Shown: piece by piece, positions 33,965-42,519 of the stretch | Layout: the number at the start of each line of letters is the position of its first letter | Numbering within the stretch: position 1 is the stretch's first letter | From: Calothrix membranacea FACHB-236 | GTDB lineage: Bacteria; Cyanobacteriota; Cyanobacteriia; Cyanobacteriales; Nostocaceae | Length of the DNA stretch: 64,000 bases | Direction: 5' to 3' | Assembly (NCBI RefSeq): GCF_014696315.1 | Contig: NZ_JACJPX010000029.1 | Location: 1 to 64,000 of the forward strand | Made by a program: the position numbers and the translations under genes | The notes under the pieces: model-generated | What the model saw: the letters and a program-made list of their open reading frames with translations, nothing else | Database searches by the model: none | Told to the model about the DNA's origin: nothing

Positions 33965-34010
33965 AAGGCGGCACCCGGATTTGAACCGGGGGATGGAGGT
34001 TTTGCAGACC
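33965..34010. repeat. attL: Left attachment site (46-bp tRNA-Cys direct repeat)
   Basis: 46 bp identical to 42474-42519, i.e. the 3' end through the anticodon loop of the minus-strand tRNA-Cys gene. Beyond 34010 the tRNA homology stops, so this is the displaced original 3' end after integration. Confidence 0.9.
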
Positions 34011-34078
34011 GGCACTGTCTGCCATTATGTGCCCCAAATGCTTAAATAGTAAGAAATATAGCCTTAACTATCTTGACT

Positions 34079-34130
34079 TTGACTATCAGCCCGACTATCA
34101 TGATGGGAGATAAAGGTTTATGATAGTCAA
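34079..34130. promoter_or_regulatory. Left integrase arm-type sites
   Basis: TTGACTATCA at 34079-34088, a variant CCGACTATCA 12 bp further at 34091-34100, and the exact inverted copy TGATAGTCAA at 34121-34130 touching the int start codon. The same decamer pair with the same 12-bp pitch is at the right end (42402-42423). Integrase binding here would also autoregulate int. Confidence 0.65.
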
Positions 34131-35324
34131 ATGAATACTGCTAAGAAGATTAAGGGTAATGTGGGCATTGAGGAATACAGGGGTAAGCTTAGGCTTAGGC
34201 TCCCTAGAACTGTAACTGAAGGTGGTAAACAGGTATACCTAAGCACTGGGTTAGATGCTAATGAGGTTAATCGCCGCAGAGTCTCCTCAGTCGCTAACTG
34301 GATGGAAGAGGATATCCTAACAGGTCAGCTAGACCCTACCCTAAACCGCTACAGAGAGAAACTAGAGGCTTACAGGCAGCCCCAGTTAACCATAGTGAAA
34401 CCTAAGACCCCCCAGACTGACCTAGTAGAACTCTGGGATAGGTACTGTGAGTTTATGAAGCCTCAGCTAGCCTCTACAACTTACCTAAAGGATTATGCCA
34501 GGAAATATAAGAATCACATTAAGGCATTACCTACTAAAGACTTAACCCAGGCGATCGCCATTAGGGACTACTTACTCACCGAGTTATCCCCTAATGCTGC
34601 AAAGAGGGTTATTACATACATAGCCGCCTGCTGTAAGTGGGCTGTAGGCTCAGGGTTAATCAAGGATAATCCCTTTGCAGGTATGTCTGAGGATATTAAG
34701 TTACCTAAGCATGACTCAGATGCCATAGACCCTTTCACTAGGGAAGAGATGAATAATATCATTCAGGCATTTGAGGAGACCAGACCCCACTATGCACCCT
34801 TTGTTAAGTTCCTATTCTGGACTGGGTGCCGGACTGGGGAAGCCATAGCACTACAGTGGAAGCATATAAACTCTGAGTGTACCCAGATAACCTTTAGTGA
34901 GTCTTATGACAGTGCCTTGAATATCCGCAAGGGGACTAAAACTGGTAAGTCTAGGAAGTTCCCATGTAATACCCAGGTTAGGCAGTTATTACTATCTATC
35001 AGACCTTCTAGCCCAGACCTAGAGCAATCAGTATTTACTAGCCCTACTGGGGGAATCATTAATAACACTAGGTTCTCTAATCAGGTCTGGAAAGGCGGCA
35101 AGGTAGGTAAGAAGCAATATAAAGGGGTTATTCAACAGCTAATGAATGAAGGTAAAATAGACCGCTACAGATGCCTATATAACACTAGGCACACCTTCAT
35201 AACACTAATGCTGGCTGAGGGTCTAACAGTCCCTACAGTAGCCAAGTTAGTTGGTAACAGCCCAGAGATTATCCTTAAACACTATGCGGGTAACACAGTA
35301 CCCTTGGAGTTGCCTAGTATCTAA
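34131..35324 (+). CDS. int: Tyrosine recombinase/integrase
   Basis: Protein of 397 residues. N-terminal arm-binding region, SAM-like core-binding domain (about 95-180), and catalytic domain from about 200. Catalytic residues visible: Arg234 in TGCRTGEA, the box II region YNTRHTF (Arg353, His354; the usual first His is Tyr350), His384 and nucleophile Tyr385 in LKHYAGN. It mediates integration into and excision from tRNA-Cys. No excisionase is recognised, though one of the small RHH proteins might serve. A perfect 11-bp-stem hairpin follows the stop. Confidence 0.93.
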   Translation: MNTAKKIKGNVGIEEYRGKLRLRLPRTVTEGGKQVYLSTGLDANEVNRRRVSSVANWMEEDILTGQLDPTLNRYREKLEAYRQPQLTIVKPKTPQTDLVELWDRYCEFMKPQLASTTYLKDYARKYKNHIKALPTKDLTQAIAIRDYLLTELSPNAAKRVITYIAACCKWAVGSGLIKDNPFAGMSEDIKLPKHDSDAIDPFTREEMNNIIQAFEETRPHYAPFVKFLFWTGCRTGEAIALQWKHINSECTQITFSESYDSALNIRKGTKTGKSRKFPCNTQVRQLLLSIRPSSPDLEQSVFTSPTGGIINNTRFSNQVWKGGKVGKKQYKGVIQQLMNEGKIDRYRCLYNTRHTFITLMLAEGLTVPTVAKLVGNSPEIILKHYAGNTVPLELPSI

Positions 35325-35330
35325 CTAGGA

Positions 35331-35355
35331 AGCCCCTAGTTGACAACTAGGGGCT
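35331..35355. terminator. Convergent hairpin between int and nuclease genes
   Basis: AGCCCCTAGTT / AACTAGGGGCT, 11-bp perfect stem, 3-base loop. It lacks a T-run on either strand, but its position between convergent genes supports a bidirectional terminator. Confidence 0.55.
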
Positions 35356-35362
35356 TATGGGG

Positions 35363-35932
35363 TTAACCCTTAATGAAATCTAGCCAGCTATCTAGGGGTT
35401 TAAATAGGTGCCTGGGGACTGCATAGGATAACTCTTGGGACTTTACCCTAAGCCAGCTAGTCTCTCTAGTCAACCTATCCGCCCTAGCTACCCTAGACTC
35501 TCCTGTGGTTCTATCAATGGCAACTATGAAATGAACAGGAAACTTATACTTAGCCCATCTGGTATCAATACCACCAACTAATATGTTATGGTCTTTGAAT
35601 ACATTAGCCTTAGTTTTAACCTCTAAGTTATACCCTTTGCCATTATGGATAACTCGGATATCCCTTTGGTACTGTGCATAGAGGCATTGGGCTAGCTTAG
35701 ACTGACTGCGGTCTCTCCAGTTATCCGGGTCAGCCTTATAAACTCCATAGACTGACCTATGGGTCATATACTGGTCTAGTTGGTACACCTTGTCTAACCC
35801 CTGGGTCTTAAGGTACTCCGCTAGGCTATATTCCCATGAGTTACCACAGGTTAGGCGGTCACTGAAAGAGTCTCTGAAGTAGTTAGAGTCTCTACTTGCG
35901 CCATTAAGCGCAATATGTGTTATAATGGTCAT
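35363..35932 (-). CDS. Putative PD-(D/E)xK nuclease of the element
   Basis: Protein of 189 residues. NSWEYSLAEYLKTQG near the N-terminus, then DIRVIHNGKGYNLEVKTKANVF, which has the Asp...Glu-x-Lys spacing of the PD-(D/E)xK fold, then a beta-strand FPVHFIVAIDRTTGE. Likely cytoplasmic DNA-acting enzyme (resolvase, restriction or packaging-related). No family assigned with certainty. The start ATG sits close to the sequence TTAAGCGCAA. Confidence 0.55.
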   Translation of the reverse strand: MTIITHIALNGASRDSNYFRDSFSDRLTCGNSWEYSLAEYLKTQGLDKVYQLDQYMTHRSVYGVYKADPDNWRDRSQSKLAQCLYAQYQRDIRVIHNGKGYNLEVKTKANVFKDHNILVGGIDTRWAKYKFPVHFIVAIDRTTGESRVARADRLTRETSWLRVKSQELSYAVPRHLFKPLDSWLDFIKG

Positions 35933-35955
35933 AAGTATTTAAGTTTGTTTGATAG

Positions 35956-35986
35956 CCCCTTAAGTAGTTCGCAGCTATTTAAGGGG
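35956..35986. promoter_or_regulatory. 12-bp-stem hairpin between element genes
   Basis: CCCCTTAAGTAG / CTATTTAAGGGG with a 7-base loop and one G-T wobble, in the 74-bp gap between the genes at 36007 and 35363. It may attenuate or terminate transcription, or process the mRNA. Confidence 0.45.
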
Positions 35987-36006
35987 ATTTACATTAGGTA
36001 CCAGGG

Positions 36007-41334: not shown

Positions 41335-41558
41335 TTGGGTTACTCCCTTTAGTCCCTTCTCTAATAAAGTGTCATTTCCTAGAGTCAAGCTAAACCCTTA
41401 CCAAATAATCAGGGTTACAGCCATTGGTATAGAGTAATCACTGATGACTATCAGAAAGCCATAGATGATATTCAATGGAATATTAAAATCCTAACCATTG
41501 GACTTTCTTATAGTTACCATAGACTAAACTCTATGCCACCTTAAGTAGTCTCTAAGGG

Positions 41559-41774
41559 TTACCGCAGGGCTTTTATCTGCCCCTGTAGTGCCTCTAGTTG
41601 TGCCTTTATGTCTTCCAGGGTTACCGGGGTTTCTGGTTGGTTCCCTAGCTGGTTACTGATGGCATCTATGATGAACTGGTGTTTACTGATACCCAAGTGA
41701 AGTGACTGGGATTTTATCTGGCTGTCTAGTTCTTCAGGAAGTCTTAACAGGAAAGCTTGCTTATTAGTAGCCAT
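41559..41774 (-). CDS. RHH protein with C-terminal coiled coil
   Basis: 71 residues from MATNKQAFLLRLPEELDSQI: RHH strand QAFLLRLP, helices SLHLGISKHQFIIDAISNQL, then a coiled coil (LEDIKAQLEALQGQIKAL). The layout is the same as the frameshifted gene at 42114-42345. Possible repressor or partition-like protein of the element. Confidence 0.7.
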   Translation of the reverse strand: MATNKQAFLLRLPEELDSQIKSQSLHLGISKHQFIIDAISNQLGNQPETPVTLEDIKAQLEALQGQIKALR

Positions 41775-41928
41775 TAGTGATACTTCTTTCCTATGTGATA
41801 CCACCATAATATCACAGTATTACTACTAGTGGCAATAGATTTCAGGTAACTTTTATTACTTGGTTAACCCATTTTGAGTAGATTTAGGTTTACCGGATGA
41901 CCTACAGTATCCCTCAGATAAACTAAAA

Positions 41929-41953
41929 ACCCTCTAGGGGTTAACCAGAGGGT
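41929..41953 (-). terminator. Rho-independent terminator
   Basis: Minus-strand ACCCTCT...AGAGGGT followed by TTTTTAG, directly after the 51-residue gene at 41962. The loop contains GGTTAACC. Confidence 0.7.
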
Positions 41954-41961
41954 CTTAAGGA

Positions 41962-42117
41962 TTATTTAATATTGTTCTTAGCTTTCCAGGCTGCCCTTAA
42001 CTCACCATAGGTAGGTCTGTATTCTGCTGGGGGCTGTCCTTGTCTTCTCTTTAGGACTTCTAGGAGCCTGGCTTGCTGTTCAGGGGTCAACAGATGCCAG
42101 ATATTATTCTTATTCAT
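41962..42117 (-). CDS. 51-residue element protein, translationally coupled
   Basis: MNKNNIWHLLTPEQQARLLE and VLKRRQGQPPAEYRPTYGEL, then RAAWKAKNNIK. Small basic protein, not recognised. Its ATG overlaps the TGA of the upstream frame as ATGA (42117-42114), a typical coupling signal, and a terminator follows its stop. These two features together support real coding despite the length. Confidence 0.6.
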   Translation of the reverse strand: MNKNNIWHLLTPEQQARLLEVLKRRQGQPPAEYRPTYGELRAAWKAKNNIK

Positions 42118-42345
42118 AACCCCTTAGCCTCTAAATACTTAGTTAACTTATCGATAGCCCTGGTGTTCTCATCAACAGCCTTATTAAGCTTCTCAAGGGT
42201 CGAGCTTAGGTCTACTGGCTGGGATTGCTTGAGAGACAAGGTACCTGATTTGGGCTGCCATAGAGATATTATTGCGGGCAGCCAAGTCTTGTAACTGGGT
42301 ATAGAGTTCATCATTCAGGGTAACCTTTAGGGATTTGATAGACAT
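42114..42345 (-). pseudogene. Frameshifted RHH-coiled-coil gene (or recoded)
   Basis: From ATG 42345 the frame reads MSIKSLKVTLNDELYTQLQD and LAARNNISMAAQIRYLVSQA, an RHH domain, and stops at 42193 after 50 codons. The +1 frame continues with SSTLEKLNKAVDENTRAIDK and LTKYLEAKGL, a coiled coil, and ends at 42114 in an ATGA overlap with the next gene. Together they give the same layout as the RHH protein at 41559. Either one base was lost or gained, or ribosomes shift +1 (CCT-TGA is at the junction). No plus-strand product is likely here. Confidence 0.55.
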
Positions 42346-42401
42346 AGGAGGCAATCAAGGCTTACTACCTTATTAAGTCAACTTGACCCTAAAAGTACCC
42401 C

Positions 42402-42423
42402 TTGACTATCAGTTTGACTATCA
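42402..42423. promoter_or_regulatory. Right integrase arm-type sites
   Basis: TTGACTATCA at 42402-42411 and 42414-42423, direct repeats with a 12-bp pitch, matching the left-end pair at 34079 and 34091. Confidence 0.65.
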
Positions 42424-42473
42424 AGTTACCCTAGTTTAGTTATTTGAGATTGCCTTAGAAGGCTGAAAGCCTT

Positions 42474-42519
42474 AAGGCGGCACCCGGATTTGAACCGGGG
42501 GATGGAGGTTTTGCAGACC
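42474..42519. repeat. attR: Right attachment site inside intact tRNA-Cys
   Basis: Second copy of the 46-bp direct repeat. It forms the 3' part of the functional tRNA gene, so the element restored the gene on integration. Confidence 0.9.

What the first reader, a model, noticed from the sequence alone, without database searches (positions are those of the whole stretch)
33965..42519. tRNA-Cys integrated satellite-like element with VapE NTPase
Seen: 46-bp identical direct repeats, a tyrosine integrase at one end, a VapE-type P-loop NTPase, a TerS-like Zn/HTH protein, a nuclease-like protein and at least four RHH-type proteins, with no capsid, tail, lysis or conjugation genes. Known: integrase plus VapE plus packaging-redirecting proteins is the layout of phage-inducible chromosomal islands and related satellites. 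Inference: a cyanobacterial phage satellite or integrated replicon of about 8.5 kb, of a kind I do not recognise as described.
Basis: partly seen in the sequence, partly recalled or inferred. Interest (0 to 1): 0.85.

Follow-up and report, generated by a model that had tools for sequence, protein, structure and literature searches.

The report
Cyanobacterial tRNA-hopping satellite-like DNA element
An 8.5-kb stretch of DNA in a Nostoc-type cyanobacterium belongs to a family of mobile elements that insert at the ends of tRNA genes and carry what looks like their own replication start; they may travel in the particles of a helper virus, but that step is not shown.

Summary
In detail: exact 46-bp repeats at 33965-34010 and 42474-42519 frame an 8.5-kb element at tRNA-Cys with a tyrosine integrase, a VapE helicase and ribbon-helix-helix proteins; no structural, relaxase or partition family was matched. 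It is mobile: two of eight genus genomes show the precise empty site, and 17 of 18 Nostocaceae element loci (window included) are framed by direct repeats of 27-96 bp at tRNA-Cys, -Ala, -Thr, -Val or dprA. Gene content is conserved but mosaic. New here: (1) 3' of vapE lies an iteron origin, mostly mirror-symmetric around a lower-GC centre; its repeat word changes with VapE lineage while the layout stays. (2) The TerS-like protein's N-terminal domain matches proteins encoded directly upstream of the large terminase in three large phages (moderate, one domain only). (3) A nuclease-like protein was found only inside these elements. Best reading: a new phage-satellite-like family that works like a PICI but fails two PICI features (known regulator type, recognisable primase). 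Helper dependence and packaging are untested. A Nostoc VapE plasmid has a similar origin layout, so an integrated-plasmid origin stays a live rival.

The parts
33965..34010 (.). distal attachment repeat, 46 bp (copy of the tRNA-Cys 3' part)
   Evidence: exact direct repeat; empty site has one copy
34131..35324 (+). tyrosine integrase (397 aa)
   Evidence: PF00589 2.1e-11, phrog_1 3.9e-48; family in 15 of 15 elements
35363..35932 (-). PD-(D/E)XK-like nuclease (189 aa), found only in these elements
   Evidence: invariant E, D-P and E-x-K positions in 10 sequences, motif reading recalled; 10 of 192 family genomes, all inside these elements; no match in phages or plasmids
36007..36543 (-). unknown 178-aa protein, same genus only
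   Evidence: 3 of 192 family genomes
36643..37125 (-). candidate small terminase subunit (160 aa): three-helix N-terminal domain, helical hairpin, conserved C-terminal tail
37115..37417 (-). ribbon-helix-helix protein overlapping the candidate terS gene
   Evidence: RHH_1 0.024, phrog_876 5.7e-4; family in 14 of 15 elements
37462..38103 (+). core protein of unknown function (213 aa), long N-terminal helix
   Evidence: 15 of 15 elements; model pLDDT 87; no BFVD match with E below 1; weak PHROG matches only
38152..38382 (+). small protein (76 aa)
   Evidence: family in 4 of 15 elements
38553..38972 (-). accessory protein (139 aa)
   Evidence: family in 4 of 15 elements
39189..39461 (.). putative replication origin: 14 GGTAAC words in near mirror-image arrays around a lower-GC centre
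   Evidence: self-inverted match in the genome search
39531..41090 (-). VapE-type helicase, likely replication initiator (519 aa)
   Evidence: PF05272 7.5e-46; profile matches PDB 7pds 4.9e-43
41185..41388 (-). NikA-like RHH protein encoded upstream of vapE
   Evidence: PF21983 2.7e-9, above cut-off; relatives upstream of vapE in 8 other loci
41559..41807 (-). HicB-like RHH protein (82 aa)
   Evidence: PF05534 0.0013, below cut-off
41962..42117 (-). small conserved protein (51 aa)
   Evidence: family in 10 of 15 elements
42114..42314 (-). 66-aa protein overlapping the next ORF in another frame
42193..42354 (-). 53-aa RHH protein, overlaps the previous ORF by 122 bp
   Evidence: PF07878 2.5e-5, just under cut-off; overlap conserved in 9 loci
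42474..42519 (.). tRNA-proximal attachment repeat, 46 bp
42475..42546 (-). tRNA-Cys(GCA), integration target, intact

Best explanation
It is an integrative mobile element of a Nostocaceae family that works like a phage-inducible satellite. Shown by sequence: site-specific insertion at the 3' end of tRNA-Cys that leaves the tRNA intact; a VapE helicase gene followed by an iteron array of origin type; separate exchange of integration, replication and TerS-like genes between elements; a nuclease-like gene seen only in these elements. Inferred: the integrase excises a circle; VapE binds the iterons, melts the centre and replicates the circle; the TerS-like protein, perhaps with the RHH protein encoded next to it, marks the DNA for packaging by a helper phage's large terminase; the nuclease acts against the helper or a competitor.
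For: Empty sites in 2 of 8 genus genomes. 17 of 18 element loci framed by direct repeats at four kinds of tRNA gene or dprA. Core genes in 15 elements: integrase 15, 213-aa protein 15, RHH100 14, VapE 12, nuclease 10; TerS-like 15 by construction. No structural, relaxase or partition family in the window element. Origin: 8-15 copies of one word within 600 bp 3' of vapE in the 11 elements examined of 12 with VapE; orientations clearly mirrored in 10 of 11, centre lower in GC than its surroundings in 11 of 11. VapE similarity follows the word. VapE profile matches PDB 7pds, 4.9e-43. TerS link: the best phage hit of one TerS-like member (E 0.02) is the gene directly upstream of the large terminase in Rhizobium phage RHph_TM16, and so are its two homologues; profile comparison 72% and 86%, against 0.06-0.5% for three other element alignments. 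Window versus L049: integrase 97%, VapE 89%, but TerS-like 29% and RHH100 33%. A prophage region with TerL, portal, major head and sheath genes lies in the same genome.
Against: No helper, induction, circle or particle was observed. The TerS link covers 42-43 columns (N-terminal domain); two of three phage searches found nothing (with limit 0.01, with limit 1); no unrelated HTH protein served as profile control; Pfam and PHROGs stay at noise ('terminase small subunit' phrog_426 in 2 of 15 at best 0.13); the best solved-structure hits are HAMP-domain proteins (0.0048); Foldseek found nothing significant. The own prophage's gene upstream of TerL shows no similarity. RHH100 and TerS-like do not always move together: L043 versus L044 are 47% and 85%. 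No AlpA-, Stl- or MerR-type regulator and no primase domain matched. Iteron-rich windows also occur by other causes: 16 of 1778 flank windows had 7 or more copies of a word, the highest 12. A Nostoc plasmid annotated with a MobV relaxase has a similar origin layout. No relatives found in IMG/VR.
Confidence: 0.58

Rival explanations
1. An integrative mobilizable element or integrated small plasmid: a VapE plasmid replicon joined to an integrase, moved by a conjugation system in trans through an unrecognised oriT, with the NikA-like protein as relaxosome accessory.
For: NikA-like family above its cut-off. VapE genes with iterons exist on Nostoc plasmids, one annotated with MobV relaxase and ParM; PLSDB types that plasmid as non-mobilizable all the same. 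The origin layout is similar.
Against: No relaxase, coupling protein or partition family matched in the element. The NikA-like gene overlaps vapE in L040 and L046, which fits a replication or control partner better than a relaxosome. The TerS-like, 178-aa, 213-aa and nuclease proteins have no match in 72,556 plasmid records; RHH100 was not searched there.
Confidence: 0.27
2. A remnant of a larger prophage.
For: Integrase, VapE (also in 509 of 50,697 phage records) and a TerS-like gene.
Against: Precise empty sites; a similar gene set recurs between intact repeats 7.0-12.4 kb apart; no structural family matched.
Confidence: 0.04
3. A satellite whose packaging does not use the TerS-like protein, the TerS-like/RHH100 pair being regulators of the element.
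For: PICIs without TerS are described (PMC6092414, passages). HTH and RHH proteins encoded together can be a control pair (recalled).
Against: The only phage homologues found lie directly upstream of the large terminase; conserved C-terminal tail beyond the HTH.
Confidence: 0.11

Closest known systems
PICI / SaPI (phage-inducible chromosomal islands)
   Different: no Stl/Rpr/AlpA/MerR-type regulator matched, no recognisable primase, RHH proteins instead, cyanobacterial host; no helper known
PICMI (Vibrionaceae minimalist satellites, PMC10803314, passages seen)
   Same: small, no capsid remodelling genes, integrase plus a replication gene
   Different: PICMI core is integrase, AlpA and a primase; these have VapE, TerS-like and RHH proteins
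Tycheposons (named in passages of PMC10803314 and PMC11389934; otherwise recalled)
   Same: recalled: cyanobacterial, tyrosine recombinase, tRNA sites
   Different: sequences not compared here; marine hosts
Nostoc VapE plasmids such as pCENA543d (NZ_CP023283)
   Same: VapE gene with two sets of iterons around a somewhat lower-GC stretch (0.40 against 0.46)
   Different: VapE identity 32% over 52% of the query; plasmid has ParM, ParA and MobV; iterons lie inside the vapE reading frame

Membership tests
PICI | unique and specific attachment sites | tested here: met
   17 of 18 loci with direct repeats at tRNA genes or dprA; whether prophages use these sites was not tested
PICI | exclusive genes | tested here: met
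   nuclease in 10 of 192 genomes, all in these elements; TerS-like in 15 of 192, all 15 in such elements
PICI | origin 3' of rep, two iteron sets flanking an AT-rich region | tested here: met
   arrays in 11 of 11 VapE elements examined, mirrored in 10; centre GC 0.21-0.36 against 0.37-0.44 around it, the difference small in L041; not discriminating, see plasmid
PICI | primase homologue (pri), separate or fused | tested here: not met
   no primase domain in Pfam; PHROG families named primase match only the helicase region
PICI | stl/rpr, alpA or merR-type regulator | tested here: not met
   only RHH-type DNA-binding families matched beyond noise among the window element's scanned ORFs
PICI | TerS, cos/pac or capsid-remodelling genes | tested here: inconclusive
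   TerS-like evidence from one domain; cos/pac not searched
PICI | phage-dependent induction, interference and packaging | not testable with these tools
   needs experiment
Integrative mobilizable element | relaxase or oriT | tested here: inconclusive
   no relaxase matched; oriT not searched; NikA-like protein present
Temperate prophage | structural and packaging genes | tested here: not met
   no TerL, portal, capsid or tail family in the window element above noise; relatives of the 213-aa protein have weak matches to tape measure (0.0043, 2 of 15) and head families
Integrated plasmid | partition or mobilisation genes | tested here: inconclusive
   no partition gene or relaxase matched, one NikA-like protein

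The most novel reading that the evidence does not exclude
A distinct satellite family of filamentous cyanobacteria that arose from VapE plasmids rather than from PICIs: it converged on the PICI plan (tRNA integrase, VapE-iteron origin, exchangeable TerS gene matched to changing helper phages), uses RHH proteins instead of Stl/AlpA for control, carries a conserved interference nuclease, and has produced origin-only derivatives (L055, and L048 without VapE) that may depend on another element's initiator.
Probability: 0.3. Interest if true: 0.78.

Novelty: new variant of a known kind. Interest (0 to 1): 0.62.

Why it matters
If packaging is shown, these would be phage satellites in multicellular, nitrogen-fixing cyanobacteria, for which my searches of open-licence papers listed no description. 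The change of origin word between lineages against a fixed layout gives a natural set of initiator/origin pairs. The exchange of the TerS-like gene between otherwise near-identical elements makes helper matching directly testable. The similar origin of a Nostoc VapE plasmid bears on the published statement that this layout is found in no other known bacterial replicon (PMC6092414, passage), and so on where PICI-type replicons came from.

Tried and rejected
Prophage fragment: rejected by precise empty sites and recurrent compact elements. Known defence system: 10 proteins scanned with PADLOC (7 window proteins, 3 of relatives); only two weak matches, both of one relative's protein (0.0088 and 0.061). 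Homologues by tblastn: TerS-like in plasmids and phages, 178-aa in plasmids, 213-aa in phages and plasmids, nuclease in phages and plasmids: none. IMG/VR scans with the TerS-like, nuclease and 213-aa alignments and the VapE protein: no relatives; these scans use short back-translated patterns and can miss. The phage protein upstream of TerL has two relatives in IMG/VR, whose surroundings I did not examine. phrog_1007 as a route to TerS identity: 0 of 243 genomes and no control rang, so uninformative. Foldseek on the TerS-like model (pLDDT 72): nothing significant; a solved small terminase (4xvn) at rank 25, E 4.2, and named small terminases at ranks 6, 8, 13 and 25 of BFVD (best E 0.19). Foldseek on the 213-aa model in BFVD: nothing; it was not compared with PDB. 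The idea that the origin layout alone proves a PICI was dropped. The idea that the nuclease is simply the most conserved gene was softened: its mean identity is 76%, but tRNA-Cys integrases are 70-97% alike, and low fourfold-site divergence in some nuclease pairs allows recent exchange instead of constraint. The background column printed words instead of counts through a script error; redone. Searches hold L045 and L135, two pieces of one element, so family sequence numbers there are inflated by one where both carry the gene. The product probabilities treat related elements as independent and overstate significance.
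Full report
OBSERVATION. An exact 46-bp direct repeat lies at 33965-34010 and 42474-42519. The only tRNA gene found in the window, tRNA-Cys, occupies 42475-42546 on the minus strand and is intact, so the far repeat is a copy of the tRNA's 3' part. Pfam and PHROGs name the integrase and VapE, and Pfam a NikA-like RHH protein; other RHH matches are weak; the nuclease-like, TerS-like, 213-aa and 178-aa proteins match no family above noise.

IT IS MOBILE. In genome G292 of the same genus the left flank (window to 33960) ends five bases before its tRNA-Cys, and a single copy of the core stands there. 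G360 shows the same empty arrangement with a slightly diverged tRNA. That is 2 of 8 genus genomes, the window's own included. G389 carries another element between matching flanks. In G399 the best left-flank match ends about 66 kb before its element's far repeat and about 75 kb before its tRNA-Cys. G333, G406 and G377 were not resolved. The element has no second copy in its own genome assembly.

THE FAMILY. The TerS-like protein occurs in 15 of 192 genomes drawn from the family, window included, and in 2 of 281 of a wider draw from the order, both already among the 15 (profile search). I fetched all 14 other regions. All 15 elements hold an integrase and the 213-aa protein, 14 the 100-aa RHH protein, 12 VapE, 10 the nuclease; the TerS-like protein is in all by construction. 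Of these 18 loci, 17 are framed by direct repeats of 27-96 bp: 11 at tRNA-Cys, two at tRNA-Ala, two at tRNA-Thr, one at tRNA-Val and one in a dprA region. The exception, L059, is a short contig. Repeat spacing runs from about 7.0 to 12.4 kb; L049 (10.6 kb) holds a transposase gene.

MOSAIC STRUCTURE. The window and L049 share integrase (97%), VapE (89%), 213-aa protein (82%) and nuclease (84%), but only 29% in the TerS-like and 33% in the 100-aa RHH protein. The window and L041 show the reverse: TerS-like 74%, RHH 85%, 213-aa 79%, but integrase 34% and VapE 25%. The two cassette proteins do not always go together: L043 and L044 are 85% and 47% alike in TerS-like and RHH100. So integration, replication and TerS-like genes are exchanged separately. 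That the exchange follows helper phages is my inference.

REPLICON. Directly 3' of vapE (39189-39461) stand 14 GGTAAC words: an outer array, a tandem pair, a lower-GC centre, the inverted pair and a nearly inverted outer array. In the whole window the word occurs 63 times against 24 expected. Eleven of the 12 VapE elements were examined in this way and have 8-15 copies of one word in 600 bp. Ten show clearly mirrored orientations; L051 does not with exact words alone. The stretch between the inner repeats has 21-36% GC against 37-44% for the 600-bp region, lower in 11 of 11 but hardly so in L041. L047, with a VapE frame of only 401 aa, showed no array. The word differs between lineages: GGTAAC, GGTAAT, TAGGACA, GAACTCA, GGACTCA, ATGGTACA or GAGAACA. 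Among 12 VapE sequences, pairs with the same word are at least 47% identical in the C-terminal part (9 pairs); those with different words average 23%, though a pair whose words differ by one letter reaches 73% (57 pairs). So word and initiator diverge together along descent. As a yardstick, 16 of 1778 400-bp flank windows hold 7 or more copies of some 7-letter word, the highest 12, so a high count alone is not unique; the recurrent place and layout are the argument. The VapE profile matches PDB 7pds, named 'Similar to D. nodosus vapE', at 4.9e-43; that this is the S. aureus SaPI5 Rep helicase is recalled. PMC6092414 (passages; [quoted passage not shown] Against uniqueness, Nostoc plasmid pCENA543d, annotated with MobV and ParM, has GTGGAAC words in two opposed sets around a 127-bp stretch of 40% GC inside the 3' end of vapE (46% GC), and the similar locus L014 has the like. 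L055 keeps an array with vapE reduced to a 63-aa frame; L048 keeps a mirror array and has no vapE match.

THE TERS-LIKE PROTEIN. The model shows a three-helix N-terminal domain and a helical hairpin (pLDDT 72), and the alignment a conserved C-terminal 'PDPxVxVxI..SLE' tail. Three members were searched in the phage collection. The window's (limit 0.01) and L044's (limit 1) gave nothing. L047's gave Rhizobium phage RHph_TM16 at E 0.02, with unrelated hits only at 0.2 or worse. That phage gene lies directly upstream of the large terminase, as do its homologues in RHph_Y1_11 and RcZahn. Profile comparison gives 72% for all 15 members and 86% for the L047 subfamily, over 42-43 columns; three other element alignments give 0.06-0.5%, but none of these controls is an HTH family. 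Other searches stayed at noise. I rate small terminase as likely, not proven. The gene upstream of TerL in the own genome's prophage shows no similarity.

THE NUCLEASE. Ten members share invariant acidic and ExK positions, which I read from memory as PD-(D/E)XK. The gene is in 10 of 192 family genomes, each time inside one of these elements, and has no match in the phage or plasmid collections. Its mean pairwise identity is 76% over 11 sequences, against 38-55% for the other core proteins; but the integrases of tRNA-Cys elements are 70-97% alike, and fourfold-site divergence of nuclease pairs ranges from 0.13 to 0.60, so recent exchange may add to constraint. L038, L039 and L040 carry a different 127-129-aa protein in its place. 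An interference role is inferred from exclusivity and position.

POSSIBLE HELPER. The own genome holds one match to PF03237, a large terminase in a region with portal, scaffold, major head and tail sheath genes. No link to the element was tested beyond.

COMPARISON. The element works like a PICI in plan but is not filed as one: two features were tested and not met (known regulator type, recognisable primase), and the phage-dependent ones cannot be tested here. It is not a prophage by gene content, and no relaxase or partition gene was matched. My literature searches list no description of it; they cover open-licence full text only. PMC11389934 (passages) mentions new satellite types from Cyanobacteria and Actinobacteria, which I take from memory to include the marine tycheposons.

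Noticed in passing
window 42193-42354 and 42114-42314 (minus): Two small ORFs overlap by 122 bp in different frames: an RHH protein and a 66-aa protein. The overlapping pair, always with the same frame offset, recurs in 9 element loci; either frame would stay open over the overlap in only about 0.2-9% of synonymous randomisations per element (elements not independent). Overlapping genes or a frameshift fusion.
   Followed up: partly
L144 (pCENA543d) 20835-21145; L014 951-1308: Nostoc VapE plasmids carry two opposed iteron sets around a somewhat lower-GC stretch inside the 3' end of vapE, resembling the layout described as peculiar to PICIs.
   Followed up: partly
L055 7469-7900; L048 14581-14844: Elements that keep an iteron origin without an intact vapE, possibly dependent on another element's initiator.
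   Followed up: no
L042 13384-13650; L050 11953-12160: VapE-less elements have a different array of GATACCA words, partly palindromic, next to a 66-aa RHH gene and a larger protein, possibly another replication or partition module.
   Followed up: no
G399:C105 about 81031-155748: The window's left flank and the occupied tRNA-Cys lie about 75 kb apart in G399 (about 66 kb to the element's far repeat), suggesting further insertions or rearrangement there.
   Followed up: no
L062 / L049 (AP018181.1): The 554-kb contig with tRNA-Cys, cpeT and transporter genes is labelled plasmid1 of N. carneum NIES-2107, although the same neighbourhood is on contigs of over 8 Mb in G292 and G360; label doubtful or a large translocation.
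   Followed up: no
L141 (own genome C128) 7612-15753: A contractile-tail prophage region (TerL, portal, scaffold, major head, sheath) in the same genome, a candidate helper.
   Followed up: partly
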